Assembly (NCBI GenBank): GCA_009829735.1
Contig: CM020618.1
Location: 5,268,882-5,332,881, forward strand
Reading direction: 5' to 3'
From: Pyropia yezoensis
Taxonomy: Eukaryota > Rhodophyta > Bangiophyceae > Bangiales > Bangiaceae
DNA length: 64,000 nt
A program made the position numbers and the translations under genes. This document shows, in pieces, positions 26,230 through 55,038 of this stretch; the first letter of the stretch is position 1, and each line of letters begins with the position of its first letter. Below the pieces are notes generated by a model, which worked only from the letters and a program-made list of their open reading frames with translations, was not told the origin of the DNA and made no database searches.

Positions 26230-28173
26230 ATGGCGACCCCGGGAGTGGAGACGGACTCTCTAGATGAGCGTATGGAGGACACCACCTACGGTGCAGCACC
26301 CGCCGGGACTTCCGGCGGGGGCTCCGCGATCGCTCCGGGGGATGGGACCCCCGCGTCACCCGGCTTTGGGTTGACGGCGGGGTCTCCCCCGGAGGCGGGA
26401 CAAGTTGTCCCGCGTGAGGCCTCGGGGCGGTGGTTTTACCCCGCTTGGCCTCCCTATGAGGAGGGGTTGACTGTTCTTCGCTGTGGCCGACTTGGCGCAG
26501 CGATGGGTCGGGTATGGGACCGCCTACGGGAGAAGTATCCCCGTAGGGTCGGGTTCCCTGCCGGCTTCAGGACGGACCAGTTTGCCTTCCTGGACGACGA
26601 AGAGGTCGAAGACGTCCAGCGTGCCAAGGCCATGGTGGACCGCGGGGGAACTATCCCGGGTCCCGGCGACTTGCCGACCTTCACGTGGGACGCTGTGGCA
26701 ACTCGCCCCCCGTACCTCCACGAGGCCGATCCGCACACTCATCACTTTGATGTGCGGATGGAGAAAGACTTCCGGCGAGGTCCCTACTTTGTGACCTCGG
26801 CTCAACTTGAGTTTCCTCAACAGTCTGCTGCCAGTAAGGAGCAGTACTATCCGAAGAAGCCCGAGTGGTGGCCTCAAGTTGAGGTCCCCTACGGGTTCCC
26901 GGCGTTGCTGCCACGGTTGCTTGACCACTTCGGCTCCGTCATGTTGACAGCTGGCCCTGATCACCTGGTGTGGGCCATGTTGGCCACCCAGTGGCTCCTC
27001 GAGGTCATGTCGACCTGGGTGTCTTGTGTTCAGCGGCGGGGGATGCTCTGGCATTTCCCCCTCCGGCTTATCCAAGGTTTGGAACAGCTCACCCCTCAGC
27101 TAGTTGCTGAGGGGTGCTCATCAAGACAACTCACTCTACTTGAGGAGATGCTCCGCCTCCACAAGTTCATCGAGTGGGAGAGCATTGAGCACAAGTTGCG
27201 CCGCCCCACTCGTGGGCCCAAGGACGATGGCGCACTTCGCCAGTTCGTGTGGGTCGCTCGTGAACTTCACGACGGCCGTGTGGTCCTACGAGAGGGGTTG
27301 GGCATCGGGGACTACCCGTATGCCCCGGGGGTGGATCGCCACACTGCGCCACCCCCGGACAAGCCCATGGTTATGGCCGTGCCGTCCTATGATGACCACA
27401 TGACTCAACCCACTGCGGGGGCCCCAAGTCGGGGTCGCAGTTACACCCGGGTCCCGCCACCTCGGCGTGCCCCTCCGCTTCCTCCTGTCCCCTACCAGCC
27501 GCACGGGAACATCCCGATCAGCGTGGCCGTGGAGTCATCCACCCCGGTGTTCCCCAACTTGGGGGCCACCCTCCTGACGGTATACCCCAAGTTGGTGTTA
27601 CCGCCCACGCCTCTAACCTCAGAGATGATGATCACCACGTTGGTGCGCACCATTTCCTGGTTGGCCGCGTCGACCGCAACCCTTCAAACTTCCGAGACTC
27701 CTCAACTTGAGGAGCGCGCTCGTACTGCAGTGGCGACCGCGAGTTGCGAGTCGGTGGCGGAGTTTATGACGGCCGAGTTGGCTCGCATCGGGGCTATTAT
27801 GCCCCAGCCAGCCCCACTTGGGCGTGGCAAACGTCGCGCGAGCCGGGCATACTCGCCTCCTCGCCGTCGTCGCCGACACTCGCGGCGCTCTCCTTCCGTG
27901 TCGGAAGACGAGTTGTCTTACTCCGTCTCGGAGTCCTCTACCCCGTCAGAGACGGAGTCTGTCCAGCGTTTGCGTCGCAAACTTGCGCGCAAGACCAGGC
28001 AGAAGAGTAGCCACGGTCGGCGCCACTTGCGCGACCGTGAAGGGCGCGACGGTTCCGACTTGGAGCCGCCGCCCCTTCCAACGAGTGGAGACCGTTATCG
28101 GCGTGGGTCTTGCCGCTCGCCTCCACGTGAGGGCGAGGGCCGTGGAGTGGGAGAGTCTAGCATGCGTGCCTAG
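26230..28173 (+). CDS. antisense ORF of element A (aORF-A)
   Basis: The 647-residue ORF runs opposite to gag-pol of its element, between the integrase end (28285, tail-to-tail, 112 bp apart) and the 3' LTR. The ATG in GAGCCATGG gives MATPGVETDSLDERMEDT. An acidic N-terminus is followed by a globular middle (residues about 60-420) with VEVPYGFPALL, LLDHFGSV at about residue 234, VQRRGMLWHFPLRLI and LLEEMLRLHKFIEWESIE. The end is basic and Ser/Arg-rich (SPPRRRRRHSRRSPSVSEDE), like RS-type nuclear or RNA-binding tails. The middle matches the antisense ORFs of elements B and C. Composition and intactness, while this copy's gag and pol are damaged, argue that it is a real gene. Function is unknown. 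Antisense ORFs after pol are known in some plant Tat-lineage Ty3/gypsy elements; homology to those is not claimed. Confidence 0.8.
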   Translation: MATPGVETDSLDERMEDTTYGAAPAGTSGGGSAIAPGDGTPASPGFGLTAGSPPEAGQVVPREASGRWFYPAWPPYEEGLTVLRCGRLGAAMGRVWDRLREKYPRRVGFPAGFRTDQFAFLDDEEVEDVQRAKAMVDRGGTIPGPGDLPTFTWDAVATRPPYLHEADPHTHHFDVRMEKDFRRGPYFVTSAQLEFPQQSAASKEQYYPKKPEWWPQVEVPYGFPALLPRLLDHFGSVMLTAGPDHLVWAMLATQWLLEVMSTWVSCVQRRGMLWHFPLRLIQGLEQLTPQLVAEGCSSRQLTLLEEMLRLHKFIEWESIEHKLRRPTRGPKDDGALRQFVWVARELHDGRVVLREGLGIGDYPYAPGVDRHTAPPPDKPMVMAVPSYDDHMTQPTAGAPSRGRSYTRVPPPRRAPPLPPVPYQPHGNIPISVAVESSTPVFPNLGATLLTVYPKLVLPPTPLTSEMMITTLVRTISWLAASTATLQTSETPQLEERARTAVATASCESVAEFMTAELARIGAIMPQPAPLGRGKRRASRAYSPPRRRRRHSRRSPSVSEDELSYSVSESSTPSETESVQRLRRKLARKTRQKSSHGRRHLRDREGRDGSDLEPPPLPTSGDRYRRGSCRSPPREGEGRGVGESSMRA

Positions 28174-28284
28174 TTGGCAGCTGCCTTTGTTGTGAGAGTG
28201 TGAGGGTTAGGGCTGAAGTTAAAAGCCACTCTGCGTACCACTTCGACTTGAAGCACTCTCCTGGCACTGTTGCTCGGCCTTCCC

Positions 28285-29652
28285 TCACGTTGAGCGAGGG
28301 CTGTTAGGGTCTATCTCATTCCGGGCACAGTACGCCCGGACCTTCTCAGCGGGAAGATCCTCCACATACTCCCACGTATCATCCTTAGCTTTGTAGCCAA
28401 ACAAACGCACCCTCAACATGAGGCGGTTAGTGTCCTCATCCCATCCGTGGTCGATGAACTTATCGAACACGTACTCCTGCGGGCCCTGTTTGGCCGCAGG
28501 CAGTGAGGGGAGGCGCCACGCTTCCAAAGCACGCGCCCAAGCTGGGTCCCTTGCAGGCGGTGGTGCAACTTTGACCACGTCCTGTCCGTTCACTGTGCGA
28601 ACCCCATCGTCACTTTCGATGGTGAAGCGCCGCCCATCAGTACGAAGGACCTGGTACGGCCCCTTCGTCTGGAATACCAACTTACCCCCAGTTGGGGTGT
28701 GTGAGTGAACCAGCACCCAGTCACCCTGTTCGGGGACATGCTTAGCATTGCGCACCTTTTTGTCAAAGGTACGCTTGTAGCGCTTTTGTGCTTTGTCCAT
28801 CTCAGCCCTGACTTTAGGGATGAGGTTTTCAAGCCTAGCAGCGAACTCCGCCTTACTCTCAGTAGGAGTAGGCGTACTGCCACCATCCTCCCTAGTTGGG
28901 AGCGACCGCCGCACGGCAATAGACCGCACGCGACGGGGGGTCACAAAAGCGAGGGGTACTTCCCCGGTAGATGAGTGAACCTGCGAATTGTAGGCAGTGG
29001 TAAGAATAGAAATGTATTGGTCCCATGTTTTCACATGCTCACTCACATAGTGGCGCTGCTGCCGAACAATAGTTTTGTTGAAGCGCTCCACCTGCCCATT
29101 AGTTTGTGGGTGGTAGGGGGTGGCATAGTTTGCCTTAACCCCCAACATATCCAGCACTCCCTGAAACAGTACAGACGCAAATTGCGGTCCATTGTCCGAT
29201 AGTGTACTATCTGGGATGCCATACGCGGCAACCCAGTGATCTAGGAAGGCTGACACGACCGACATGGCCGTGATCTCTGCCAGTGGGATCGCTCGCGTAA
29301 GTTTCGTGAAGCGGTCACAGATGACCAGGAGGTACTGGTTGCCCTCCTCGGTCACTGGCAGTGGCCCAAGGATGTCCATCGCCAACGCGGCGAAGGGCTC
29401 CTTGGCCGGGAACAATAGCATAGCCGTAGTAGGCCGCCGTTCCATCAGACGGTTCTGCGCACAACTTGTGCAGGCAGCCACCCAACTGTAGATGTCCACC
29501 ACCATGGACGGCCAGTAGTACCTGGTCCTCAGGGTCTGGTACAGTTTACTAGACCCCAGGTGTCCACCCGTGGGAGCGTTGTGCTCCCTCTCAAGGATAC
29601 TGTCCTTGAGGGATGCGGGGACGACAAGTTGCTCGGTCCCCTGGAATACCCC
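28285..29652 (-). pseudogene. integrase and chromodomain part of element A pol
   Basis: This is the C-terminal part of A pol, cut off from RT/RNase H by element B at 29652/40478. It contains the CxxC half of the zinc-binding domain (CTSCAQNRL), the catalytic core with MDILGPLPV (first Asp), STLSDNGPQFASV (second Asp) and PQTNGQVERFNKT (Glu), and a chromodomain-like C-terminus (EYVFDKFIDHGWDEDTNRLM...DDTWEYVEDLP) that could guide integration to histone marks. The segment itself has no internal stop, and the reading frame continues exactly across the insertion point when the ACCCC duplication is counted once. Confidence 0.9.
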
Positions 29653-30015
29653 TGTAGCAATATGGTTGTCCGTATTGTGACCCTAATATTAGGGGGGCTA
29701 CTTCTAATCCTTAACTTTCAATTTGAGAGTCCGTACTGGTCACGGTATCTATAAGTTACGTATGACCAGAGGGACTTGCATCTTGGGGTGGAGGGTAGTT
29801 AGTAGTGTCTCCGAGGGTTTATAACGAGGGGGCCGGTGGCGAATCCACCGCCGGCCAAGGTAGAACAACAAACCCCTCCCATTTGGGCTCCCATCTTGGT
29901 CCCGTGGCTTGCGCTCCAAGGACAGCAACCTTGGCCTCCCGGTGACGTTGGTGCCGATCCCCCTTGGTGAGTGTTCCCTGAGAGTGGACGCGCGACGGAT
30001 CCCTATTGTGCTACA
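29653..30015 (+). repeat. 5' LTR of element B
   Basis: It begins TGTAGCAATATGG and ends ATTGTGCTACA, giving TGTAGCA/TGCTACA inverted ends. TCTATAAGTT and GGGTTTATAACG inside are candidate TATA elements. Confidence 0.97.
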
Positions 30016-30016
30016 T

Positions 30017-30033
30017 TGGTGGAGCAGCAGGGG
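30017..30033 (+). other. primer-binding site of element B
   Basis: TGGTGGAGCAGCAGGGG follows the 5' LTR by one base. It starts TGG, complementary to the CCA end of a tRNA. The same 16-17 bases follow the 5' LTRs of A and D. I do not recognise the tRNA. Confidence 0.75.
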
Positions 30034-30240
30034 ACGGGTCTCCGTCACCCTTGTGGTGACGCCGTCTTCGGCCCTGGCACACGGATAGGGATCCGGTCCT
30101 TTTCTTGTACTCGTGGTGTTGCGACCTGATCGATTGTGTTGAGCTTTTACCTGTGACTGTGACCTACTGTTACTCTCCCCAATCTACCCCCTCGCTCTCT
30201 TGTTCGTGGTGATTGATACGTCGGTTGACTGATTGTGACC

Positions 30241-32424
30241 ATGTCTACCCAAGAGACGGGGAACGTTCAAGATGACGGATCGGCGTCGACGCCGACCCCG
30301 GAGGTGACTACGGGAACCGGGATCGGGAACCCGATCGATAACATTGAGACGCCAATGCTTTCCGGTGCCGGATCGACGTTTGGCACGGCTCGGACGGCAG
30401 GAGGCGGGGGCCCGCCTCAACTGTCGTCGACCGACCTCACTCCGCCGCCTCCTTCACCAGGGGATTCCCTGATGGCATCATTGGCCCGCATCGAGGCCCG
30501 GTTTTCCGGGCTCGACGCCCGTCAAGATCGGACGGAGGACGCAATGGCAGTGTTGATGTCAACACGGCACACGACGGGACCCCGTCGTGTTCCTCCCACA
30601 CCGGTACGGTTCGAACCGGCCGGACTACTTTCGGAGTCCACCAGGGTCAACCCCGGTGTTGCTACTCCTGGACAACCCCCGGACACAATGGGGTATGGGT
30701 CCGACTCGTCGGCAGAATTGGAACGGAGTCACACGGAGCGATACGCTCGGAGCACCCGAAGCGGACTCCGCGGACACGACCCGGCGGATACGTACGCCGG
30801 GGGAGAGTCGGTTATTGGGGGAGGGGGTACCCTCTCGCAGTACCCCCACGACGAAGGAGGCCAGGCAACTCGGGTTCCCGAGGTGCCGACGCCTGAAGTA
30901 CCATCTTCAGTGGTGGAAGCTATGACCGCGCAGGTAACTGCGAGCCTACTGAAGCGGATGGAGTCCGATGAGTTCGCTCATCAACTGGCTAAGCGACTGG
31001 ATATCCAGGACGCTGACACGGAGATCGTCAGCGAGGTCTTCCGGTCGGTTCTTACTCCGGAACGTTATCGTTTGGAGGACCGCTCTACCACCGTATCGGA
31101 ATCGATGCGTAATACGTCGCATCGGGCGATCCGCTCTATGCAGACCCTTATGAAGGGAGTCCCTATGTTCGGGGGGCCGAACGGACGCCCGTTGGCAGTC
31201 ATCGGCTTCTTGACTAGCTTCAAGGCAGCCGCAGACAAGGCGCTCGTTAACGAGGGGCTGGCCCTGGAGATCCTCCCGTTCTTTGTTGATGAACGGGTGC
31301 GAGGCATTCTTCGCCAGGCATCCCCGATGCCGGGAATGAGGGTCGCGGCCACCCCCATGGATTACCGTGGGATATTGAAGGAGCTGCTGAGCAGTTACCT
31401 CAGTGAGGACAAGTGCGAGGACCACTATCGGGCCCTTCGCACTGCCACCGCCCAGTCCTGGGAGGATGAGGAGATGTTTGGACGCCGGATCCAAGAGCTC
31501 GACTACGAGCTGGGGAAGCTCCTCGGAGAAGGGGAGCTACGGGCCATCCTGTTCGCAGGAGTACCCAACTACGTGCGGATATCCGCACGGGGCGCCAACA
31601 CGGCACGGACGAACTTCAGTCGACTGATGCATATGTGCAAGTCCCTAGGGGACGCCTACCGGGTTCTACACCCGGAGTGTGCCTTGGCCCCGAAGCCCAA
31701 GGGTGAGGGAGGCAAGCCCAGTCTTACCCCGGTACCGAGGCAAGAGAAGGTGGAACGTAAGGCCGCACCAGTACTGGTGGCGACCGAACATACCCCTATT
31801 GGTGAGGGTGACCCTCTAGTCGACCAACAGGGCCACCTGTTGCTACCGGCGACGCCGGTGATTGATGAACATGGTACGGTAGCGTACATCGCCCCGGCTG
31901 GAACCCAGTTCCAGGTCAACGAAGGAACGGGACGGCGCGTCCCGTATGTGCGGACTACGGGGTACTCCCCGGTGACGGGTAACCCTCACCAACCCTTGCC
32001 AACATGGGCGGTGCGCACGGAGGCACCCCCGCAGATTGCGGGCCGACCCAACCGGTTGGGGGAGTCCATGTTCCGGTTGACCCAAGGACCCAAGGCCTAC
32101 CAGGGAGCAGGCACTCGGGCGCCCGAGGGAGGCAACCGTAGCTACGGGGCTACCCCGATGCGACCTCAAGGAGGGACCGGCACGTCCGGGTGTATGTTGT
32201 GTGGGGATCCCCAGCACTGGGTGTCTTCCTGCCCACTCATCCCCGAGGAGTCTCGGCGGGCAGCGGCGCAACGCAAGGCATCCACCGGGGGGTTTTCCGC
32301 CCGAGCACCCGGACCCGCACCGGGTAGGCAGCCAGCTCCAGGTGGAGTACTGGCCGTCGAGGGGGCACCTCCTCAGCCGGATGTCCCGGCGGACAGCACC
32401 CTACCAAGGGCGGGAAACGAGTAA
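30241..32424 (+). CDS. Gag polyprotein of element B
   Basis: 727 residues from ATG at 30241, about 210 bp after the primer-binding site. The N-terminal third is Ser/Thr/Gly-rich. The central capsid-like region (about residues 300-480) has FGGPNGRPLAVIGFLTSFKA, LEILPFFVDERVRGILRQA and EDHYRALRTATAQSWEDEEM. A single CCHC zinc knuckle, CMLCGDPQHWVSSC (about residue 657), should bind genomic RNA. The C-terminus ends RAGNE, and element A Gag ends SAGNE. The stop TAA is eight bases before the pol ATG, so pol is probably reached by reinitiation and not by a frameshift fusion. Packages RNA into cytoplasmic virus-like particles, by family. Confidence 0.93.
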   Translation: MSTQETGNVQDDGSASTPTPEVTTGTGIGNPIDNIETPMLSGAGSTFGTARTAGGGGPPQLSSTDLTPPPPSPGDSLMASLARIEARFSGLDARQDRTEDAMAVLMSTRHTTGPRRVPPTPVRFEPAGLLSESTRVNPGVATPGQPPDTMGYGSDSSAELERSHTERYARSTRSGLRGHDPADTYAGGESVIGGGGTLSQYPHDEGGQATRVPEVPTPEVPSSVVEAMTAQVTASLLKRMESDEFAHQLAKRLDIQDADTEIVSEVFRSVLTPERYRLEDRSTTVSESMRNTSHRAIRSMQTLMKGVPMFGGPNGRPLAVIGFLTSFKAAADKALVNEGLALEILPFFVDERVRGILRQASPMPGMRVAATPMDYRGILKELLSSYLSEDKCEDHYRALRTATAQSWEDEEMFGRRIQELDYELGKLLGEGELRAILFAGVPNYVRISARGANTARTNFSRLMHMCKSLGDAYRVLHPECALAPKPKGEGGKPSLTPVPRQEKVERKAAPVLVATEHTPIGEGDPLVDQQGHLLLPATPVIDEHGTVAYIAPAGTQFQVNEGTGRRVPYVRTTGYSPVTGNPHQPLPTWAVRTEAPPQIAGRPNRLGESMFRLTQGPKAYQGAGTRAPEGGNRSYGATPMRPQGGTGTSGCMLCGDPQHWVSSCPLIPEESRRAAAQRKASTGGFSARAPGPAPGRQPAPGGVLAVEGAPPQPDVPADSTLPRAGNE

Positions 32425-32432: not shown

Positions 32433-35400
32433 ATGACCGGGGGGCGCTGGGGTTACCCAAGCAAGCCACCTCGGAGTACCGCGGGGAAAGCCCCACGGAG
32501 AGCGCGGTTGAGCCGACGCCGCATCAACCCCCGGGTACACCTTCCGGCCCCGACGACACGGCGTCAGGGGATTGATGACCAACCTCCAAGGTTGGGAGGA
32601 AAGGACGGGAAGCCCCGTCACGTTGAACCAGACAAGGGCCCCGTTCAGGATGCCCGAGCTACACCGGATATCGGTGTAGGACATGTGTTGTTTACCTTGG
32701 AGAACTTCAAGGTATCAGCCACACTGGGGGTTGACCCCCAGTCGACACGATCGTACTACCCTGTACTGGATACAGGGGCTGGACCCAACCTTATCCGGAA
32801 GGATACCCTCCCGGACAAGTGGCTTCCACGAGTCAGAGTGACTCGGGGACCCACCATCAAGGACGCGAATGGTCGACTCATTCGTACGACCGCAGCGATG
32901 TCGCTGCAGGTTACCATCGGGGATCTCACCACGGAAGTTGACTTCCTGGTATGTGAAACGCTATCGGTGCCCTGCATACTGGGGTGCACCTTCATCAACG
33001 TTCACGTTGATGCAATCCGGCCAGGCCGGAGGACCGTCGAGCTTCAAGAAGCCGACGGGACGAAGCGAGGACACACGGCTATCGTCAGGGACCTGACGCT
33101 ACAAGGAAGCCACGTTAACGTGGCTGAGGTGTACGCAAGCGTCGAGCCGAAGACACTTCGGTTGGCCGAGCGAACTCGCTTTGAGCCGTTGTCAGAGACA
33201 GTCCTCCCGGTTAACTGCGACCTCGCAGGCATCTGCAGAGTCCAGTCCAACCTACGGACGTACAAGCGCCATGGGTTGACCATGGCCAACGGTCTCATAG
33301 ACCTCCCAGCAGGAGGGTCGTCCCTCCTAGTGATGGCGAACTACCGCCGTAAGGCAGTCACCCTCCCGAAGGGAACTATCCTCGGGATTGCCGAACTCTA
33401 CGAAGGAGATATCCTTACCCCTGATAAGGAAGGTCAAGTGGAACCACTTGAAGTACTGGCGGTCGCCGAGACCACCGAGCGACAGCAACCCGATGACGGG
33501 AAGCCTAACCCATCGGCGGCTCCGGCGGACCTGCCGCCAAAGAACCAAGAGGCCTTGAAGGCACTGGCCGAGGCTGACCTCGACCACCTTCACCCTTCGG
33601 TAGCCGAAGGGGTACGACGGATGCTAAGAAAGCATGACGTTATGTGGACAGGCGGGGCCTTGGGAACCATTGGGGCAACCCAACATCGTATAGACCTGGT
33701 ACCAGGCGCACGACCCGCCCGCTCACAACCGCACCGAGCGGGACCTATGCAACGAGAGATCGTTGATGGAGAAGTGAAGAGGATGAGTGAAGCTAAGGTG
33801 ATCCGACCTTCGATGTCGGAATGGGGTGCCCCAGTCGTTATTGTGCCGAAGAAGGATCAAACCCCTCGGTTTTGCATCGATTATCGACGCCTCAACTTGG
33901 TTACCAAGAAGGACTCATACCCTTTACCAAGGATGGATGAATGCATCGACTCCCTGGGGGAGGCTACGGTGTTTACCACCATCGACTGCAATGCCGGATA
34001 CTGGCAGATCCCGGTGGCGGACGAGGATATCCCCAAGACGGCATTCGTCTGCCACAGTGGAATGTACGAGTTCCTAAGGATGCCCTTCGGATTGTCCAAC
34101 GCCCCCGCTACATTCCAGCGGGCTATCGACATCATACTGTCGGGGGTGAAGTGGCGTAACTGCCTAGTGTACCTCGATGACGTCATCGTCTTCTCGCGTA
34201 ACATGGATGACCATGTACAACATGTTGACGAGGTACTCACCCTCTTGAGGAACGCCGGGGTAACCCTGCGTCTGAAGAAGTGCGCCTTCTTCCAACAGAC
34301 GGTCGAATATCTGGGCCACCAGATAACCCCTGGTAAACTAGGGGTACTCGAAGCCAATACCCGGGCACCGCGGGATGCCCGGTTCCCTAACACCCAGACG
34401 CAGCTCAAGAGCTTCCTGGGAATGTGCAATGTATACCGACGGTTCGTCAAGGACTTCGCTCGGATAGCTAAACCGTTAACGGTTCTTACGAGCAATACCT
34501 TACCCAAGGTACTCCAACCCCCTTCGCCTAGCGAAGAGGAGGCATTCGAGTCGCTGAAGCGAGCCCTACTAGCCCCACCCGTCCTTGCGTTACCGCATAG
34601 ACGGGGTACCTTCGTCATCGATGTCGATGCGTGTGATACACAAGTGGGATGCACCCTGTTACAGGGAGAGACGTTGATCGGTACCGATAACGTTATCCCG
34701 GACCTACGTCCGGTAGGGTACTTCAGCCGGACACTCAACCCGGCTGAGCGGAACTATAGTGCCACCGAGCGTGAATGCCTCGGAGTTATATGGGCAGTGC
34801 AACTGCTCCGTCCATACCTGGAGGGCTCCAGGTTCATCGTGAGGTCCGACCACGAACCCCTACGATGGCTCCTCAACCTTGGTGACAAGGATTCCGATAG
34901 CCATGGGAGGCTAGCCCGATGGAGGCTGAAGATGGCCGAGCACGACTACCGCACGGTGTATAAGGCTGGGTCAACCCACCACCTCGGAGACGCGTTGTCT
35001 CGACTCGACACCCCGAGCGGGGATACCCGCCCGGTGGACGAGGACATCCCGGTGGTACCGGTGTGCATGGTGGGTAATGCTACCCAGGGTATGGCTGACC
35101 ATACCATGGCACACCTTGCGTGCCCATTGACCCTCGCGGACTTCCGCGAGGCACAGGCCAACGACGATGACTGTAGACGTCATCGTGCTAACCTCCTGGC
35201 CGGTACGGCCGGCATCTTCTCCGAGAACGAAGACGGACTCATATACCGGCGGGCACCCGCCGATGGACGACACCAAGTCGTGGTTCCCGTGTCCTTACGG
35301 CAAGCCGTCATGGAACGAGAACATGAGAACCCTACAGCCGGACACCCGGGGGGTTCACGTATGTTCGCAGCAATGCGAAGGTTCTTCTACTGGCCAGCAA

Positions 35401-36599
35401 TGGCCGTCGACGTGGTCGACCACGTAAGGGGATGCCACCCCTGTGCGCGTAACCGCATGAGTCTACATAGGCAGGCGTCTGCCATGAAGCTATTCCCACC
35501 CGATGGGCCCAACGAGCAAGTCGCTATCGACATACTCGGGCCACTCCCGGTAACGGAAGAAGGGAACAGGTACATCCTGGTCATGTCTGACCGATTCACC
35601 AAGCTGTCACGAGCGGCAGCCATCCCGAATGATACGGCATACACGATTATGAACGCAGTGGTTGACCACTGGATCAGTGCATACGGAGTCATGAAGCAAC
35701 TCCTCTCCGATAACGGAGCAAACCTTACGTCGGCATTCTGCACGAAGGTCCTGGGCATGTTCGGTATCGAACCACGTCGGGCATCCGACTACCACCCGCA
35801 GTCCAACGGGCAGGTGGAGCGGTTCAACCGCACCATCGTAAAGATGCTACAGTGCTACGTGGCCGAGCACACGAACACTTGGGACAGGCTTCTGTCCGTA
35901 CTCACCCTGGCATACAATGCCAGGCCACATCGGAGCACAAACATTGCTCCGCTGGAGTGGGTCATGCCACTAGGCGTCGGTAACCTGACGCTGCCACCCG
36001 GCAGGTGCACTCGATATGATACACCGAAGGGCCGACCCGCCGAACGCATCCACCTAGCTTGGTTGGCCAAGCTATCGTGGATGATTCCTAAGCTCAAGGG
36101 TGCCCTTGACAGAACACAACTTCGGTATAAGAAGAACTTCGACGCCCGACTACGGGTGCGCAACGCAACCCTGGTAACAGGTGACTGGGTCTATATCAGA
36201 CACCAGAAGTTCCGAGGGAACAAGCTTATGCAACCGGTCAAGGGACCGTACCAGATCCTCCACAGAGATGACCACTCTGTTATCTTACACTCCGATACGG
36301 AGATCCAACGCATCAGTATGAATGATGTCACACCTGCTCCGAAGCCGGAACAGCCTCAGCCGGTACCGGCTGGGTTGCTACATGAAGCTCTTACAACCCA
36401 CCGGTCGGATGACCCGGTGGGACCGGATGGGATTCCATACCAAGTAGAGAGCGTGGTCGGACACACCGACCCGAACATACCAGGACCCTGGTACGTCAAG
36501 GTTATGTGGGTCGGATACGACTCACCCACCTGGGAACAGGCGGCGAATATACCCCGCCAACTACTCATGCCTTACATGAGGCGACGACGCCTACTGTAA
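32433..36599 (+). CDS. Pol polyprotein of element B
   Basis: 1388 residues with all domains in gypsy order. Aspartic protease has VLDTGAGPNLIRK (about residue 110). Reverse transcriptase has RFCIDYRRLN and YLDDVIVFS (about 579). RNase H starts FVIDVDACDTQVGC (about 726) and has SATERECLGVIWAVQLLRPY. Integrase has an HHCC zinc domain (HENPTAGHPGG...CHPCARNR, about 965-1005) and a DDE core (AIDILGPLPV, LLSDNGANLTSAF, HPQSNGQVERFNRT, about 1031-1128). A C-terminal chromodomain-like stretch is VESVVGHTDPNIPGPWYVKV...SPTWEQAANIP. No key residue is missing. Its ATG follows the gag stop by eight bases. Confidence 0.96.
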   Translation: MTGGRWGYPSKPPRSTAGKAPRRARLSRRRINPRVHLPAPTTRRQGIDDQPPRLGGKDGKPRHVEPDKGPVQDARATPDIGVGHVLFTLENFKVSATLGVDPQSTRSYYPVLDTGAGPNLIRKDTLPDKWLPRVRVTRGPTIKDANGRLIRTTAAMSLQVTIGDLTTEVDFLVCETLSVPCILGCTFINVHVDAIRPGRRTVELQEADGTKRGHTAIVRDLTLQGSHVNVAEVYASVEPKTLRLAERTRFEPLSETVLPVNCDLAGICRVQSNLRTYKRHGLTMANGLIDLPAGGSSLLVMANYRRKAVTLPKGTILGIAELYEGDILTPDKEGQVEPLEVLAVAETTERQQPDDGKPNPSAAPADLPPKNQEALKALAEADLDHLHPSVAEGVRRMLRKHDVMWTGGALGTIGATQHRIDLVPGARPARSQPHRAGPMQREIVDGEVKRMSEAKVIRPSMSEWGAPVVIVPKKDQTPRFCIDYRRLNLVTKKDSYPLPRMDECIDSLGEATVFTTIDCNAGYWQIPVADEDIPKTAFVCHSGMYEFLRMPFGLSNAPATFQRAIDIILSGVKWRNCLVYLDDVIVFSRNMDDHVQHVDEVLTLLRNAGVTLRLKKCAFFQQTVEYLGHQITPGKLGVLEANTRAPRDARFPNTQTQLKSFLGMCNVYRRFVKDFARIAKPLTVLTSNTLPKVLQPPSPSEEEAFESLKRALLAPPVLALPHRRGTFVIDVDACDTQVGCTLLQGETLIGTDNVIPDLRPVGYFSRTLNPAERNYSATERECLGVIWAVQLLRPYLEGSRFIVRSDHEPLRWLLNLGDKDSDSHGRLARWRLKMAEHDYRTVYKAGSTHHLGDALSRLDTPSGDTRPVDEDIPVVPVCMVGNATQGMADHTMAHLACPLTLADFREAQANDDDCRRHRANLLAGTAGIFSENEDGLIYRRAPADGRHQVVVPVSLRQAVMEREHENPTAGHPGGSRMFAAMRRFFYWPAMAVDVVDHVRGCHPCARNRMSLHRQASAMKLFPPDGPNEQVAIDILGPLPVTEEGNRYILVMSDRFTKLSRAAAIPNDTAYTIMNAVVDHWISAYGVMKQLLSDNGANLTSAFCTKVLGMFGIEPRRASDYHPQSNGQVERFNRTIVKMLQCYVAEHTNTWDRLLSVLTLAYNARPHRSTNIAPLEWVMPLGVGNLTLPPGRCTRYDTPKGRPAERIHLAWLAKLSWMIPKLKGALDRTQLRYKKNFDARLRVRNATLVTGDWVYIRHQKFRGNKLMQPVKGPYQILHRDDHSVILHSDTEIQRISMNDVTPAPKPEQPQPVPAGLLHEALTTHRSDDPVGPDGIPYQVESVVGHTDPNIPGPWYVKVMWVGYDSPTWEQAANIPRQLLMPYMRRRRLL

Positions 36600-37079
36600 C
36601 AACCCAACCGACACCGACATCGGCTGTTGGGGGGTGAGGCTTATACCTACTAAGTAGGGTGTGACATGGTTACGGCAGACTTAGGTTTCTAAGTCAAATC
36701 AGACTTAGGTTTCTAAGTCGAACCAAGCTTAGGTAACTAAGTAGAGCCAAGCTTAGGTAACTAAGTAAAACCTGAACCTTAATAAGTTAACTAAAAGGTA
36801 AAGGCTAACTCCGATAATATCGAAGTAACTAGGGAGCTTACACGGGAGGATGACCTCCCCAAGCCAAGACACAAAGTGAGGGAGGATAACCTCCCCAAGC
36901 ATGAACCAACCGGAAGAAGTTGGGCGGGAGGCAAGGCACCACTGAGCCAGAAGGGGTACTCCCCAGGGCAGCAAACAGAGGCAAGCAATGCCCCCAGCGG
37001 GGGATGAGTTTATACTCACTACTACCCGGCGACCATAAGGGTTGCCGGGGCCCTCTCCCTCACAAACAAATAGCACTCC
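36600..37079. other. pol/antisense-ORF spacer with a hairpin array
   Basis: At 36678-36765 four 24-26-bp tandem units each hold a short inverted repeat: GACTTAG-GTTT-CTAAGTC twice, then CTTAG-GTAA-CTAAG twice. A related CCTAC-TAA-GTAGG precedes them at 36646. The array lies exactly where the converging pol and antisense transcripts would end. No ORF is evident. Confidence 0.75.
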
Positions 37080-40477: not shown

Positions 40478-43094
40478 ACCCCCCTCCTCATGAGGAGGCC
40501 ATCGTCTCCCAGAAAGAAGCGCGTCTCAACCACTGTATCCAGTGTATCCCTCTGCGACTTGCAGAAGGGATCCTCGGCCTGGGCCTTCACCACCTCGTCC
40601 AGGGACAGGGGCAAGTTCTTCTTGTTCCCTGGCGCCTCGGGGTTCAACGCCTGACCCGAGCGCGTGACTACCCCCACGATGGGGATTTCCTCATCGGGTT
40701 AGTGTCCAGCCCCGCGGTAGGTACCCGAGAGAGGCCGTCGGCAAGGGCATGTTGCCTGCCAGGTCGGTACTCAATGTCAAAGTTGAAGGGTGCCAGTCGC
40801 ACCCTCCACCGATTGAGACGAGTGTTCGTACAGTCCGTCTTAAAGATGAACTGCAACGCGCGGTGGTCACAGCGGATGAGGAACTTCTCACCCTCTAGGT
40901 AGTGACGAAGTGACGTCACCGCCCACACCACTGCGAGTCCTTCCAACTCGGTGACTCCGTAGTTCTTCTCGGCCGAGTTCAGCCCCTTACTGAAGTATCC
41001 TACCGGCAAGTACTCCTTGTCCGGCTGCTGCTGAAGCAGCACACAACCAAGTTGGTCGTAGCTAGCGTCCACATCCAGGATGTAGTGGCCTCCCAACCTG
41101 GGAATAGCCAGGATAGGGGGCTTCAGCAGAAGGTCCCGAAGAGTCTCAAAGGATTCGTGCTTCACCCGACTTGGGGGAGGCATGTTCTTTGGTAGCGTTG
41201 AGCTCACTAATTCATTCAACGGCTTCGCCACCTTGGCGAAGCTCTTGGTGAAACGTCGGTACACGTTACACATCCCGTGGAAGCTCCTCATCTGGGTCTG
41301 GATCCGGGGGTACTGAGCCTTACGGATGGCCCTCAAGTTTTTCTCGTTGACACTGAGACGCCCCGGACGGACAACATGTCCCAAGTATTCCACCTCTTGA
41401 ATAAAGAGGTGGCCCTTACTCGCCTTCAGTGACACACCGGCGTCAGCAAGTAGCTTGAGCACCTGGCCAAGATGGCCAACGTGTTCCTCCGGACTTCGGG
41501 AGAACACAATGATATCGTCTAGGTACACAAGACAGATCTGCCACCGTACTCCGGCCCGAATCATGTCCATAGCGCGCTGGAAAGTTACCGGCGCGTTACA
41601 CAGACCAAACGGTAGACGCTTGCACTGGTAGGTACCACAGTGACAGGTAAAGGTAGTTTTATGCCTGTCCTCCGGGGCAATGGGAATTTGCCTGTACCTC
41701 GCGTTACAGTCCAGGGTAGAGAACACGTTCGCCTCCCCCAGAGAGTCCAGACAGTCGTCCATCCTAGGTAGGGGATAACTGTCCTTCACCGTGCTCTCGT
41801 TGAGCTTACGGTAGTCGATACAGAACCCGGGGGTCCCATCAACTTTGGGGACGATAACCACCGGACTCGCCCACTCGGCGTTGCTGGCCTCGATCACATC
41901 GAGGGCCTCCATGCGAGCAACTTGCTCCTTAACGAGGGCCCTTGAACGAGGTCCTCCCCTATACGGTTGTTGGCGTGTAGGGGGTGCACCGGGCTTCAAC
42001 TCGATCCGGTGTTGGGTGGGTCTCATGAGTCCCAATTGACCATCCCACAACGTGTGATATTGGTCCAAGAGGCGTTCAACTTGAACCCTCAACCTGGGGG
42101 GGACACCCTCCATGTTCACATGGGGCCGAGGAGAGGCGGCCGACTTGGCTTGATGCTTCTCCTTTCCGGACTTCGGGTCGCTACTTGCGCCCGCGTTGAG
42201 GGTGACCGCTACTACCGGTCCCTCGTGTTGGTAGATATAGCCGAACTTGGCTCCCGACTTGAAGTACTGGGGCGACGAGCTCAGGTTCATCACCTGGATC
42301 CTCCACGGGACTCCGGCTTTGGAGTCCATCGTGCCAAGGGCAACATGCACTTGGTGCTTGCGAGCAAGACGGGGGTAAGGGTGCACCAACCCGTTTCCCG
42401 TAAATTCAGTTACAACGTCAACGTGCGCCACCGAGTTGGGGGGCAACGTGACTTTACGGGCTAAACGCAGGGTAGCAGTAAACCCTTCCCTCACAGAGCA
42501 AACAGGTTTCGACTGTGAGACTGTCACAGGAGCCACAGACTTTCCCTTTCCAAGGATGGGGATAGTCTCCCCATTCATCAACTTGACCCAGTACTCAGGG
42601 CCACAAATCAAAGGCACTTGTGTAACAACATAAGGGGTACCCAGAAGCAGGGGTACCGATATATTCTCAACTACACCATAGGTCACGTCGACCTCATGGG
42701 TCCCCAACCTAGTTGGTAGGGTCACGGCACCAACAATGGGAAGTTTCCCACCATTGATGTCAATCATATGGTCAGCTTTGGACCTCCAGCGTTGTAGCTT
42801 CACCTCCTTTGGTAATAGCGACTTGCGTATCAAGGAGGCTCCTGACCCGGTATCAAGTACGATACGGGCACAACAGGCGCGGCCGGGGGCAAGTTGCACC
42901 CGTCCAGCCACCTGGAAGTTCTCACCCGTCAGCACCGCGATGACCCGACGTGGGTTTACGTTCGTGGGGAGTCCTACCCGAGGTGGGCGGACTCCCTTAG
43001 GTCGCCGCAGTATCCGGCACGGTTGGTTCGTCCGCTTGGCCCACTTGGCCGAGGCTGCCGTTGTGAGCTTCGGACGGCCAGCTCCAACGGTCAT
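40478..43094 (-). pseudogene. protease, RT and RNase H part of element A pol
   Basis: The ATG at 43094 overlaps the gag stop (ATGA). Visible are protease IVLDTGSGASLIRK, reverse transcriptase GFCIDYRKLN and YLDDIIVFS, RNase H YILDVDASYDQLGC and GVTELEGLAVVWAV. The frame ends early at a TAG (40668-40670). Shifting by one base near 40697 restores a colinear protein (PDEEIPIVGVVTRSG) up to the element B insertion at 40478. One base therefore seems lost in the CCC of an Asn-Pro-Asp stretch, which would inactivate integrase production; a sequencing error in the C-run is possible. The protein continues at 29652. Confidence 0.92.
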
Positions 43095-45037
43095 TCGTTT
43101 CCCGCCGACTTGGCGTCCGAATCTGAGGGCGGAGGGGAAGACGACGAGTCCGAGGACGACGTGTCCGCCTCCTTCGCCGAGGGTGTGGCGACCGCGACGA
43201 CTGGTCGAGACCCACCCTCGCGGCGTGAACGTACTTCGTTCGTAGCCGACTTCTTACTCGCATTCCTAACAAGTTGTTGGATGCGTTTACTCAACTTGGG
43301 GCAATCATATGCCCAGTGTCCATCGGAGTTGCAGTTCCAACACCGATTGTCAGTTACCGGAGGGATCTTCCCAACTGGGGAAGACGCAGAGATACCCTGG
43401 GAAGCTCTTACGGCAGCTACCACCCTCTCCTTGCGGATTCGGCGTGTCTCTCTCAACTATCTGGCCTGTCGCGACTCCGCACGTTCCTTGGCCAACTCGG
43501 CCTGACGCTCCTGGCGTTGTTCCTCCCGCAACTTGCGGTAGGCCTCGCCTCTGCGGTAGGCGAACCTAGCCAACTCGGCCAGGGTCGCCCGGGCAGTGTT
43601 ATGCTCCCGGGTCTCCATCCGGACTGACCAGTGGAGTCCCTCCACAAACCGACTCTTCACCACAGCTTGTGGATGAAGAAACCCACAAAGATTGTTGAGC
43701 TTACGGACTCGCTCCGCAAAGGACGACTCGTCCTCCGCCTCTTCCTGATGGGCTTGCGTAAACTCCTCGACTTGAGAAGCCAACGCCGCTTCATCAACCA
43801 TGGCCCTCAACAACCAGTCGACGAGCTCCAAATAGGACGTCACCTCCCCAGCGCCTCCACTTGAGGAGCTGGGCATGACGGACATAAGTTCTGTCCGTAG
43901 GTCGCCCTTCGTAAACTCCTGTAGCATGTAAAAAGCCATGCCTTCACTTATGGCATTGTCGTCACAGGCTTTTGTGAAACGACGTAGGAACTCAAAGACA
44001 CGGAGGGGGGGGGTTCCATCCCACTCCGCTTTGTGCCCAAAAGAATGAAGTGCATTCTTCTTGGCACGGCCCATGGCTTGGGCCTGGTCAGGACCATACG
44101 CCACCGACTTGTTGTGGAGGGCGTAGGTCTCACAGTCAAAGATCCGCTGGTAGACCGGGTTGGCTACCTAGATCTTGGGCGGCACCTCACGTTGAGGGAA
44201 CAGCCGCTGTGGCACTGAGGTAAGTTGACCCTCAGCGCCTGTAGTCTGGTACGGCGAGCTTGGTGTAGCCGCCGGCGTTTCCGAGGGGAACTCCCCCGGG
44301 AAGGGCGTACGCCCCACCGAGAATGGAGCGGCTCCCACGTTGGGAGTCACTGGTGTCGCCCCCTGTTTAAGGCGACCCGAGATAGGTGTGAGGGGAGATT
44401 CCCCCTGCGCCTGCGGGCTCGAAAGCCCCAATCCGGTCTGGACATTGAGGCCATCTGGCAAACTCGCCACAATCTGATTCAGAATAGTATTCGTCATCGT
44501 GACCACCAGGTCCGGCAAAGTCTGCCGCAACACATTGGTCGCCTCCCGACGGACAGTTTCCGCGAGGAGTGGATTGACGACTCCAGTTGAGTCTCGGTCC
44601 GCCTCCGGGAGTCCACCTGAGGGGTAACCACGTTCCTCAGGGGTCTCAACCGGGGGCATGGGCGCGAGCCCATCGCCGACCAACGGAGGTCCGCCGTCCT
44701 CCGAAAGCCTAGTTGGCGACGGCTCCAAGCCAAAGTTGGCTCCAACCCGAGTGGAACCCGCGGGGACAGTCCTCACCCCTTGGGACGTTCCCGTTGAGTA
44801 TACCACACGGTGGCCAGACTTCGGCCCACCCACATCAGAAGTGTCACCCGAGTGAACTCCCGACTGAGTCGGGGTGGCCTGTTGCCCGCCAGCACTTCCA
44901 GTCCTGCTGGCCTGAGGGACCTCTAGTCCCTCTGCGACCCCAGGTAAACCCACCTGTGTCTCACCAGTATTCAAAGGCACTGAAGTACGTGCGTCACCCG
45001 TGTACTCCCCGGACGACGGGGGGTCCGAACTAGCCAT
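43091..45037 (-). pseudogene. gag of element A with two in-frame TAG codons
   Basis: One frame runs from ATG at 45037 (MASSDPPSSG) to TGA at 43091 but is interrupted by TAG at 44168-44170 and at 43457-43459. The part after the first stop contains the capsid-like core (FDCETYALHNKSVAYG, EWDGTPPLRVFEFLRRFTKA, AGEVTSYLELVDWLLRAMVD), clearly related to Gag of element D (LDCESYALANKS, LWDGTPPLGVFEFRNRF). The last part has a CCHC knuckle, CWNCNSDGHWAYDC, and ends SAGNE. Both TAG codons could come from CAG by one C-to-T change. Readthrough cannot be excluded, but mutation is simpler. Confidence 0.88.
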
Positions 45038-45137
45038 GTTGGCTGACGATCCGTACGACACGGTCCAAGTCCTCCGTTCCTCTGAGACAGAGGGCCCCCT
45101 ACACCCGGGTGCACCCTGAGGTAAAGTTTACCTCTGT

Positions 45138-45156: not shown

Positions 45157-45625
45157 TGTGGCAAAAACCACTTGCACACACGGCACCCAAGTTGGGGCGG
45201 TGTACAAGGGCTGCCTCCCGTGTCGGGGGAACCGGAAGAAGTACAAGTCGCACACACTCTGTCCCTGTTGTGGGGCAAACCCCCCACGGACAAACAAGAG
45301 GATGGTGTGTGGTCCAACAGTTTCTTGGTCGGGACGGGGACGCAGGGCCAAGCCCCGCTGTCCCTCCCCTTATCCCCCCAGGGTCCACTCAGAATCTCGG
45401 CACTCAGAATCTCCCACCCCAGCACCTGCCCACCGGGCCACACGAAAATTCAAGACGATAAATGCAGAAAACCCTCAAATCCAAGTTGGATTTACTACTA
45501 AGCTAACTATCCCAAACTTAGGGAATATGGACCCAAATGCAGGGGGAGGAACGGATCAGGCTAGTGGCCTGCCGCCCCTTGCATGGCACGTGTTGCCCCC
45601 CTACCTGGGGGTCAATACTGCCACA
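45157..45625 (-). repeat. 5' LTR of element A
   Basis: 469 bp with TGTGGCA/TGCCACA ends, flanked by CATTC at 45626-45630. An open frame through it (Cys-rich) is coincidental, because both LTRs carry it and it has no ATG context. Confidence 0.95.
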
Positions 45626-51679: not shown

Positions 51680-52629
51680 CTCAGGTTGTCGACAGAGGGG
51701 TTGTGAACATAACCAGCGGAGAGGTGGCTCGCGGAGAGTAACGGTAGGGAAGTGTGGGGTAGGGAGGGGTAAGAGAACGGGATGCTCGTCATCTGCATCC
51801 GTGCACCCCCCCCCCCCCCCCCCTTGTCACACTACCTGACGCACCTACCTGCTCCCCAGACCGCTCGCGACCAATGCGCATTGGACTGACACTGGCGGTT
51901 GGGTATGCTCGTGGGATGGGCTCTCCGAAGACCGCAAACATGAAATACCATCCGCCTCCCCTCAGTTTCTCCCTTACAAAGGACCTCCGCAGCCGAGCGT
52001 TTTCAGTTACATCTTCTGACAGGTCGTTAACGTAGTAAGAAGGCAACAAAGGGCTCATCCGCGCTATTCGAACCTGGTGCGGTCTCATTAAAGGCGGCGC
52101 GCGGGTCGATTTGGTTGATCAGCCCGCAGTTGCTGAATGACGTCATACGAAGATCACCCGTCATCTCGCTGCCGTTACGCCTTGGCATCATGATCTGGAC
52201 ACCTCGCCAATCCTCCCCACAACGCCAACCCGTGCTCCCCATCACAGATATCCACGTCGTCATCCACACTGTCGACACAGTCCGGACGACGTAACCGACG
52301 CGCCCGACCAAGTCCCCGAGGACAGGTGGAGCGGGCTGGGGGGAGGGGGGGGGCGGCGTCTGTGGCGGTTGTGGTACAAAACTCGATCCTCTCAGACACG
52401 TGTCAATATCCCTCGGGGGAAAGGGACAGGTAACACAGAAAGGGGAAGTACGAGAATGGTATGCCTGTTGCCTCACGTGCCTGCTCGCAGAGCAAGCAGA
52501 TACGCACGGTAGTGCACACGGGGAAGAGGAAAGCAAACGCGCAGTTGTCTTTTTCCTGAGGGCGCGGGCCAAGGGCGCCTCGCTGTCCCTCTTAACGTGC
52601 ATCTGGGGGAGCCTCGGCACGTTGGCCAG
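51680..52629. other. possible decayed upstream coding fragments
   Basis: On minus, 52088-51870 reads LPSYYVNDLSEDVTENARLR and FVREKLRGGGWYFMFAVFGE. A neighbouring frame ends NQIDPRAAFNETAPGSNSAD. Both look coding but do not join in one frame. They may be remains of a gene upstream of the BRCT frame. A poly-C run lies at about 51806-51823. Confidence 0.3.
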
Positions 52630-52650
52630 GTAGCCCCCCCATACCCCCGA

Positions 52651-52694
52651 GTGGCCCCGACCCGAGTCTAACCTCGTCAGGTCGGGGGCCACTA
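52651..52694. repeat. hairpin in the probable 3' LTR of element C
   Basis: AGTGGCCCCGACC and its complement GGTCGGGGGCCACT are separated by 17 bases. Element D's LTR has a comparable hairpin (TTGGCCCGC...GCGGGCCAA, 59560-59610). These may be R-region structures. Confidence 0.45.
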
Positions 52695-53125
52695 TCCCTA
52701 CTAGTTCTATTCCCACTCACTAATCTCACACTCAAATTCTCTCAAATCAAGTCCCTCACAAGTATGCAAAAACCCATCAGAAATCCCTCTCTCACGTGTG
52801 GATAGCGTAGTCCACCGCATCCCAGTGCCGGGCACGGGCCACGGCCGCCAACCATCACCACACGGCGGGCGTGTTCTGGCACCTGGTGCCCTCTGGTTAT
52901 AGTCCCGGGTCGGCGCCAAGTCGGGGCCAGGGATGCTACGTAGCTCCCTCCCTAGTCCGGCACGTCCTCGGGCCGAACCTGGTGCCACCGTGCACAGCCT
53001 CGAGCACGTCCACACCGGTGCCGAGGTCGAGCGTCTACACCCCGGTCACGATAACCTGCTCTGATTCTGTCCCCCCCCCTTCTCCTTCACCTTGGCCCTC
53101 TCGTTCCCCCCGGATTCTGGACGTC

Positions 53126-55038
53126 ATGTCCAGTTCCGAGATCCAAGCTGGGCCCGTGGTTCCGGCGGCGAGTGTTGCGGAAGAGAACTCGGGTAGTCGC
53201 GCCCCTCTCCTGCCTCCGGTTCCTCGAGTGTCGGTGCCCGCGCCGGTCGCCACGGCGGGGACGGATCGGGTTCCCCCGGCTTCTGCATTGCACCCGGTCG
53301 AGACCCCCCCGGGGGTCTCCCAAAGATGCTTCTTGGTCAGGATCCTCTGGCGGGCCGGCGCTACTCCACGGTGGTCGGCAACGCCAGCGCGGCCCCGTGC
53401 CCACAGGATTGCTTGGACATCTGGCGCAAGGAACTCCAGCGCGGGGTCTTGACCGAGATGGACAAGACTCGCCTTCATACGGCGGACCAGATGCGCCTGG
53501 AACAAGACCGCTCCCAGAGCTTCTCGGGTTCCTCTTGGGTTGCTCGCCTGGAGGATCTTCCCTTCGCGCTGATGCTGGATCTACCCTTGACCGAGCGTCG
53601 CGTGTCTGCGTCCGTTCTCCGGTGGCCAGAGGAGGAAGGGTACGTCCACCGGGCGCTCAAGGTCTGGGACGAGGCGCTCAAGGGGTCGGGGAGCCTGAAC
53701 TGCGATCCCCGTCCGAGCATGGTCGCTCTGGAGCCGACCCTCCTGACCCGGAAGTATTCCAAGTTGTCGCCGGCACGGGAGCAGGGCGAGCGACGCGGCC
53801 GCCAGCGTGACTTCATCGTGAGCTGCAACCATCAGGAGTTCTGAAAGCTGGACAAGGCCAACCGGGCGGCGTACTACCCCAAGGTCATCCCGCAGCAGCA
53901 GGAACTCGAGATCCCAGTCGGGTTTGCTCCATCCAGCATCCCCTTCACCTGGTAATTCTTGGACGCCTTGACCCAGGCGTCGATCAAGGGCTTCTTTCAC
54001 TCGGTCCCTTACATGATGTACACCTCCGAGTTGACGGTCTTGGCGGCCAACCACTGGCTCCACGAGGTCCTGGTGTCCAACCGGCTTTGGTTCCTCCCCG
54101 ACCTCCTGATGGTCTGGATCGTTGACAAGTCGACCTTCGACTTCCTGTGCAGGCAGGACGAGGAGTACATGGAGCTCATCCAGGCGATGATCGACTTCCG
54201 GCGTCGGCTGCCGGTGCAGGACCGGAGCTTCTTGAACGCGATCGCCGACCAGAACAGCCCGCGTCGGGATGGCTCCGGTTGGGTGCAGGTGATCTACCAG
54301 TCTTCTCCGGCCAAGGTGCAGCTGGCGACACCGCTTCAGGCGTGGCCGCAGCTAGGCAGCTTTCCTGCTCCGGTCGCCCTCGATCTTCTGCCAACTGGGC
54401 CGCCGGTGCAAGAGTCGGGATGGGCCGCGGCGGTCGGTCGGGCGTCTGCGGCGGCTCCGCTTGCTCCTGTTGCACCTGTCGTCCCGGTGGCTTCGCCTGG
54501 TCCGTCGCCGGCGTGTTTGCGTTCTGCTCCGTCTGTGCCGGTGCTTCAAGCTCCTCCGGCACCGCGGTTGTCTTCAGCGAGTCTGGGCGTGGCCGTGCTG
54601 TCGCCGACTACTCCGGCCGTTCTGCCTCGGGCGCCTTCTTCAAACGTCGGCGGCCCTGTGCCTCCTCTTGAGTTGGGGACTCCGGTTTCCGGGGCTGTTG
54701 TGGACCGTCCGGTAGTGGCATCCTCGGGGCGGTTCGAGATCCCGGCGCCGACTCTTCGCCTTACCCGCTTCCGGGTGCCTGACTGGTACCTGAACCAAGG
54801 TGGCCCGACGTGCGACCAGTATGACGTCGGCATGATTGAAGACCAGCTGGGTCGTCTTCCTGTGCAAGTCGAAGGCGTCGGGACTTCTCTGGTGCTGGGC
54901 ACCTACGCTAGCGTCTTGAACAACGTGGTTGACCGGGTGTTTGCTTGCGCGGACAGCGGCCAGTTGTCGGACAGCCCGGTGGTTGGCGAACTTCTGGCGA
55001 CTTTGACGCGGCATGGCTTGGCCCAGCAGTGGTCATAG
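53126..55038 (+). pseudogene. antisense ORF of element C (aORF-C), broken
   Basis: Starts at ATG 53126 (MSSSEIQAGPVV). It changes frame around the C/G run at about 53305-53315, then carries TGA (53842-53844) and TAA (53953-53955) in the continuing frame, ending at TAG 55036. The protein is otherwise colinear: FALMLDLPLTERRVSASVLR, YYPKVIPQQQELEIPVGFAP, GFFHSVPYMM (about 53989), LVSNRLWFLPDLLMVWIVDK and YMELIQAMIDFRRRLPVQD. These align with aORF-A (YYPKKPEWWPQVEVPYGFPA, HFGSV, VQRRGMLWHFPLRLI) and with aORF-B. The end reads GTYASVLNNVVDRVFACADS. Both stops could be single transitions (CGA to TGA, CAA to TAA). It is opposite to pol, with 84 bp between the two stops. Confidence 0.75.

What the first reader, a model, noticed from the sequence alone, without database searches (positions are those of the whole stretch)
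26230..55038. Conserved antisense gene in three divergent Ty3/gypsy elements
Elements A (26230-28173), B (37080-39527) and C (53126-55038) each carry a long ORF on the strand opposite to gag-pol, at the same place between pol and the 3' LTR. The three proteins share a colinear core: a Tyr-Pro/Glu-Pro-Phe segment, (F/Y)FxSV, a V-x-R/N-x-x-L-x-x-P-x-x-(L/V) segment and a Leu/His/Trp helix about 35 residues later. The similarity is weak but ordered. The ORFs are intact in A and B even though A has a damaged gag and pol. Antisense ORFs are known in plant Tat-lineage elements, but I know of no description for this group. Possible roles are host silencing suppression, nuclear import (A has an RS-like tail) or control of sense RNA. 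All roles are inference.
Basis: partly seen in the sequence, partly recalled or inferred. Interest (0 to 1): 0.88.

Follow-up and report, generated by a model that had tools for sequence, protein, structure and literature searches.

The report
Antisense gene in red-algal retrotransposons
Three different families of jumping genes in a nori-type red alga each carry, on the strand opposite to their usual genes, a related extra protein gene that natural selection keeps working, which suggests that these elements depend on a so far undescribed helper protein.

Summary
Elements A, B and C each carry a long ORF antisense to gag-pol between pol and the 3' LTR. The cores of A and B, and of A and C, are homologous (0 of 3000 shuffles reach either score); B-C directly is only suggestive. 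It is a real protein gene. In family A, window copy against three others, dN/dS is 0.08-0.10, as low as in the adjacent integrase (0.09-0.14). In family C, variants shared by 5 or more of 42 copies are 128 synonymous to 64 not, against 286:675 for singletons. The C gene is broken in the window; 19 of those 42 copies are open. B has homologues in Pyropia vietnamensis. No domain is recognised and the AlphaFold models are too poor to use.

The architecture is known from flowering-plant Retand-type elements, but no TRP28 domain is found and the host is a red alga. I read it as a trans-acting, probably nuclear, regulatory or anti-silencing accessory protein. The coding gene is shown; expression and role are inferred.

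The parts
25379..25847 (-). Element A, 3' LTR (element reads on the - strand)
   Evidence: pair with 45157-45625; TGTGGC...GCCACA ends; CATTC duplication
26230..28173 (+). Element A antisense gene, 647 aa, intact; RS-like basic tail
   Evidence: 68 of 68 scored places open, the window's own included; dN/dS 0.08-0.10
28285..29652 (-). Element A integrase part of pol with weak chromodomain-like tail, cut off from the rest of pol by B
40668..43094 (-). Element A protease-RT-RNase H
   Evidence: Pfam RVT_1 4e-29
43457..45061 (-). Element A gag, with an in-frame stop in this copy (copies without it exist)
45157..45625 (-). Element A, 5' LTR
29653..30015 (+). Element B, 5' LTR (nested in A's pol)
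   Evidence: pair with 40115-40477, ACCCC duplication
30235..32424 (+). Element B gag, 729 aa
   Evidence: similar to A and D gag
32433..36599 (+). Element B pol, 1388 aa
   Evidence: Pfam RVT_1, RNase H, H2C2, rve
36676..36772 (.). Four 24-bp, partly palindromic repeats between the convergent pol and antisense gene of B
37080..39527 (-). Element B antisense gene, 815 aa, intact; homologues in Pyropia vietnamensis
40115..40477 (+). Element B, 3' LTR
52370..52938 (-). LTR-like repeat next to C (3' LTR side; ends not fixed)
   Evidence: 97.9% identical to an inverted copy at L059:6340-6908
53126..55242 (+). Element C antisense gene (705 aa in open copies), broken by frame changes and stops here; overlaps the pol end by 120 bp
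55123..57192 (-). Element C integrase part of pol with chromodomain-like tail
   Evidence: Pfam rve 2e-9, Chromo 1.7e-4 on the tail alone, below the curated cut-off
57253..58974 (-). Element C RT-RNase H
   Evidence: Pfam RVT_1 4e-36

Best explanation
It is a protein-coding accessory gene shared by at least three diverged families of red-algal Ty3/gypsy elements whose integrases have chromodomain-like tails; it was probably present in their common ancestor (no gene tree was made). It lies antisense between pol and the 3' LTR and is kept by purifying selection while the elements multiply. Inferred: it is transcribed from a promoter in or just inside the 3' LTR, independently of the gag-pol RNA. 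Its product, a helical core plus proline-rich linkers and a helical C-terminal part, with basic stretches in A and C, acts in trans in the nucleus to keep the element expressed, by regulating its transcription or by countering host silencing. Shown here: gene, homology, constraint, position. Not shown: transcription, localisation, action.
For: Homology beyond 3000 shuffles for A-B and A-C. dN/dS 0.08-0.10 in A, with codon positions 6-7/7-8/49-53 of 63-66 differences, against 0.09-0.14 in the adjacent integrase. If the 65 differences between the window copy and L060 fell at random they would give 19 synonymous on average and at most 33 in 2000 trials; 52 are seen. In C, shared variants are 128:64 synonymous:nonsynonymous and singletons 286:675, Fisher p 1.8e-21. 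Of the six frames only the antisense one is both constrained and open in the unbroken copies. 68 of 68 scored A places open (young copies, so weak by itself). B-type proteins in P. vietnamensis at 52-63% identity over 21-98% of the queried region. Nuclear location and an own promoter upstream of the gene are reported for the positionally equivalent gene23 of maize Grande (PMC7264820, passages).
Against: No transcript or protein evidence could be looked at. No recognised DNA-binding domain. The AlphaFold models have mean pLDDT 34.8 and 38.5, so no fold supports a function, and the helical core is only a low-confidence prediction. B shows no basic cluster by the pattern used. B-C similarity is weak on its own. 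23 of 42 C copies have a stop in the gene frame, as dead copies would.
Confidence: 0.6

Rival explanations
1. The protein works in the replication cycle itself, for example as a second structural protein, an RNA chaperone or a nuclear-import adaptor of the pre-integration complex, not as a regulator.
For: Constraint as strong as in the adjacent integrase; the basic RS-like tail in A and basic stretches in C could carry cargo.
Against: No BLASTP similarity to the gag proteins of A, B or D (best antisense-gag match E 0.72). A product made from the opposite strand is uncoupled from gag-pol, unlike known structural parts (recalled).
Confidence: 0.25
2. The antisense transcript is the functional thing (a regulatory RNA that forms duplexes with the genomic RNA) and the ORF is incidental.
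For: Suggested as a possibility for plant antisense ORFs (PMC7264820, passages). The 600 bp upstream of the C gene hold few shared variants (0.037 per site against 0.06-0.13 in the gene).
Against: The codon-position and synonymous signal in A and C and conserved amino acids in P. vietnamensis need a translated product.
Confidence: 0.04
3. Chance ORFs in GC-rich, young copies, with similarity from composition.
For: The region is GC rich and A and B are recent insertions.
Against: Shuffle controls, codon-position constraint against a singleton baseline, 7-24 stops in every other frame of A and B, P. vietnamensis homologues.
Confidence: 0.01
4. The gene came from a host gene or from another mobile element inserted backwards into an ancestral Ty3/gypsy element (a question of origin, compatible with the main explanation).
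For: The orientation itself is what an inserted gene would give; such origins are discussed for plant antisense ORFs (PMC11963269 discussion).
Against: No relative of another kind was found in Pfam, NCBIfam, PDB sequences or three protein searches, all of limited reach; whether the P. vietnamensis genes lie in elements was not checked.
Confidence: 0.3

Closest known systems
Antisense additional ORFs (aORF-3R) of plant LTR elements: TRP28 proteins of Retand elements (Retand ORF4), maize Grande gene23, rice RIRE2, PvRetro13
   Same: Antisense gene between pol and the 3' LTR, present in many copies, function unknown; nuclear protein and own promoter reported for gene23 (PMC7264820 passages; PMC11963269 abstract, background, discussion).
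   Different: Flowering plants; Retand is a non-chromovirus lineage. The red-algal proteins show no TRP28 (PF04195) or other credible Pfam match, and their elements have chromodomain-like integrase tails (below cut-off).
HBZ / APH-2 antisense genes of HTLV-type deltaretroviruses
   Same: Antisense gene of a retroelement with a nuclear regulatory product (PMC11963269 background).
   Different: No bZIP match (that HBZ is a bZIP protein is recalled); unrelated host and element; no transcript shown here.
VANC anti-silencing proteins of Arabidopsis VANDAL elements
   Same: An element-coded protein that counters silencing, the role supposed here (search listing and abstract starts only).
   Different: From a DNA transposon (recalled); no sequence relation was tested beyond Pfam; function here is only supposed.

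Membership tests
Plant Retand-type antisense ORF (TRP28) family | ORF antisense to gag-pol between pol and 3' LTR | tested here: met
Plant Retand-type antisense ORF (TRP28) family | TRP28 / Transposase_28 domain (PF04195) | tested here: not met
   no such hit in hmmscan of A, B, the window's C pieces and six relatives or copies
Plant Retand-type antisense ORF (TRP28) family | Element belongs to that non-chromovirus lineage by RT phylogeny | not tested
   no reference RT set was used; Pfam Chromo hits on the integrase tails of A, B and C (E 0.019, 0.063, 1.7e-4, all below the curated cut-off) point away from it
Ty3/gypsy (Metaviridae) | LTR pair, gag, pol in the order protease-RT-RNase H-integrase | tested here: met
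   A and B have LTR pairs and the order; in C no gag or 5' LTR was identified
Chromodomain-bearing Ty3/gypsy elements | Chromodomain at the integrase C-terminus | tested here: inconclusive
   sub-threshold Pfam matches in all three
HBZ-like antisense regulators | bZIP domain | tested here: not met
   no bZIP match
HBZ-like antisense regulators | Antisense transcript | not testable with these tools
   no RNA data at hand
VANC-like anti-silencing proteins | Binds element DNA and reverses silencing | not testable with these tools
   needs experiments

The most novel reading that the evidence does not exclude
Red-algal Ty3/gypsy elements recruited, independently of land plants, an unrelated protein family into the same antisense slot next to the 3' LTR, and this protein is a fast-diverging, sequence-specific nuclear factor that each family needs to escape host silencing. 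That would be convergent evolution of retroelement regulator genes in red algae, flowering plants and deltaretroviruses.
Probability: 0.3. Interest if true: 0.82.

Novelty: new variant of a known kind. Interest (0 to 1): 0.64.

Why it matters
It adds a new setting to the antisense-gene architecture and gives evidence of selection on the protein: as strong as on the adjacent integrase in one family, independently supported in a second, with homologues in another species in a third. That makes the question of why a retrotransposon would keep a gene on its opposite strand testable, in an alga in which the A and C genes alone have 68 and 113 scored matches, both lower bounds.

Tried and rejected
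AlphaFold on B (residues 260-815) and on the A core gave mean pLDDT 34.8 and 38.5; only about 60 C-terminal residues of B reach block means of 60-86 (helical). No fold search was run on them. Pfam hits to DUF6214 and DUF6525 are below cut-off. PDB profile hits (an MHC class I chain, E 0.0096; Rieske protein, E 0.0054) I take for chance. The idea that the antisense protein is a duplicated gag was rejected on BLASTP. The chance-ORF idea was rejected. Rfam found nothing in 25300-64000 and ARAGORN no tRNA in the window. Whether element D, next to C, has the gene could not be told because a B-family copy follows its pol. The copy number of B stayed unknown because the search did not complete. Literature listings for Pyropia, Porphyra, red-algal and Rhodophyta retrotransposons, in part with antisense terms, showed no description of this gene (open-licence PMC only; of these papers only passages of PMC7264820 and PMC12477816 and parts of PMC11963269 were read). 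misread the orientation of minus-strand loci and was replaced.

Rows dropped: of 50 C loci (L009-L038, the 30 best, and L039-L058, 20 that I chose, out of 113 scored matches) L014-L016 (units of a tandem array) and L044 (masked letters) were left out before alignment, then L017, L045, L046 and L053 (ends did not align), leaving 42. With those last four still in, the codon-position pattern was the same. For A, 3 copies of 68 scored were compared with the window copy. In one search two of the three integrase copies matched only over 805 of 1221 bases.
Full report
Setting. The window lies at C1:5268882-5332881 of a 107.5 Mb assembly in 11 contigs. The right half is a nest of Ty3/gypsy elements. 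Element A (- strand) has LTRs at 25379-25847 and 45157-45625 with CATTC on both sides. Element B (+ strand) sits inside A's pol with LTRs 29653-30015 and 40115-40477 and ACCCC on both sides. The LTR pairs differ at 1 of 472 and 2 of 363 aligned sites, so both insertions are young. Element C (- strand) has pol at 55123-58974 and an LTR-like repeat at 52370-52938. The aligned pol stretches are 41-53% identical between A, B, C and a fourth element D, so the families are old relative to their copies.

The genes. Each of A, B and C has an ORF antisense to gag-pol between pol and the 3' LTR: A 26230-28173 (+, 647 aa), B 37080-39527 (-, 815 aa), C 53126-55242 (+, broken here, 705 aa in open copies). 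The ATG lies 382, 587 and 187 bp inside the 3' LTR or LTR-like repeat. The 3' end meets the end of pol tail to tail: a gap of 111 bp in A, 480 bp in B, where four 24-bp, partly palindromic repeats lie between the two genes, and an overlap of 120 bp in C.

Is the likeness real? BLASTP of A against B gives E 9e-8 (24% over 189 aa) and of A against C 1e-7 (22% over 166 aa). Core against shuffled core: z 12.8 for A-B and 11.5 for A-C, with 0 of 3000 shuffles reaching the score. B-C alone is weak: BLASTP E 0.05 for the core, z 4.0 with 8 of 3000 shuffles reaching it, hhalign probability 3%. Against all 200 window ORFs of 120 aa or more, the partner (B for A, A for B) comes first after the query's own ORF; for C, A comes first after C's own two pieces and B next, barely above an unrelated ORF.

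Is it selected as a protein? Family A: window copy against three other copies, 63-66 differences, 49-53 of them at third codon positions, dN/dS 0.08-0.10. If the 65 differences to L060 fell at random, 19 would be synonymous on average and at most 33 in 2000 trials; 52 are seen. The integrase stretch next door gives 0.09-0.14 for the window against the same three copies. Pairs among the three other copies rest on only 9-21 differences and range from 0.08 to 0.11 in the antisense gene and 0.04 to 0.31 in the integrase. Family C: 42 copies. Variants found in one copy fall nearly evenly on codon positions (312/300/350; synonymous:nonsynonymous 286:675), as expected for dead copies. Variants found in 5 or more copies, which arose while the family was multiplying, fall 38/26/128 and 128:64 (Fisher p 1.8e-21). 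The ratio of ratios is about 0.21. In the six-frame version the gene frame gives 0.22; the mirror frame on the other strand gives 0.27, as third positions face each other there, but it holds at least 6 stops in each of the 34 copies without gaps in the aligned gene (frame numbers shift in some of the other 8); the remaining four frames give 1.6-2.8. In the gene frame 19 of the 42 copies have no stop and 23 have one or more (my count). Family B: own-genome copies could not be searched, but eight proteins were found elsewhere: two at 94% and six in P. vietnamensis at 52-63% identity over 21-98% of the queried region. A protein open and recognisable at that distance is itself a sign of selection.

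Copies. The A protein matched 68 scored places (of 3546 candidates, the window's own included), all with an open frame of 723-779 aa; all but the window's own are 98% identical to it. The C piece (360 codons) matched 113 scored places (of 691 candidates), 95 of them without a stop inside the matched piece by my count of the table, many with frames of 760-846 aa. Both are lower bounds.

What the protein is. No Pfam, NCBIfam or PDB match is credible. Relatives from the three protein searches are one for A (96%), one for C (98%) and eight for B; those for A and C and the two close ones for B come from assemblies without an organism name and may be the same or a near species. Each search scored only about 8000 candidates, so absence elsewhere is weak evidence. 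A has an arginine/serine-rich tail and C two short basic runs; B has none by the same pattern. The proteins have proline-rich stretches. AlphaFold models are unusable except for a helical C-terminal stretch in B.

How it may work. The sense RNA starts in the 5' LTR (general knowledge), so a gene on the other strand must have its own promoter, most simply in or just inside the 3' LTR. In C the 600 bp before the ATG carry fewer shared variants per site (0.037) than the gene (0.06-0.13), which fits a constrained promoter and LTR but is not proof. A product uncoupled from gag-pol could be made when the sense promoter is silent. With the reported nuclear location and own promoter of maize gene23 (PMC7264820, passages), I think a nuclear trans-acting regulator or anti-silencing factor most likely (0.6), a role in the replication machinery next (0.25). 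That the protein cores differ more between families (22-24% identity) than pol (41-53%), while being as constrained as integrase inside family A, fits a factor that recognises family-specific targets; this is inference.

Compared with the known. Antisense ORFs between pol and the 3' LTR are a common feature of flowering-plant Retand elements; 97% of the clusters in one survey encode TRP28 (PMC11963269 abstract). The architecture is therefore known. The protein family, the host phylum and the chromodomain-like element type did not turn up in what I could search. I recall, without having read it here, that a survey of plant Ty3/gypsy elements (Steinbauerova et al. 2011) found extra ORFs in chromoviruses only in 5' regions.

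Verdict. A real, selected antisense protein gene family; new variant of a known kind; function inferred.

Noticed in passing
G000:C2:16966315-16975413 (L014-L017): Four copies of the C antisense gene stand in a row at exactly 2673-bp spacing, a tandem array of part of the element.
   Followed up: no
36676-36772: Four 24-bp repeats with partly palindromic units between the convergent pol and antisense gene of B; could be a two-way end signal.
   Followed up: no
25804-25892: The 44 bp at the inner end of A's 3' LTR are repeated directly beside it (97% match).
   Followed up: no
59400-65052 and beyond (L063, L059): Another Ty3/gypsy element D (gag 59977-61767, pol frame to 65052), followed by a B-family gag-pol copy and then a C-family LTR-like repeat in opposite orientation: a deep nest of elements.
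   Followed up: partly
45140-45154 (-), 30017-30031 (+), about 59833-59847 (+): A, B and D share the same primer-binding-like sequence TGGTGGAGCAGCAGG, beside the 5' LTR in A and B.
   Followed up: no
15500-17130, 20425-20840, 9930-10760: Long tandem repeats (18/21-bp, 12-bp and 118-bp spacings) in the left part of the window, the first inside ORFs open on both strands.
   Followed up: no
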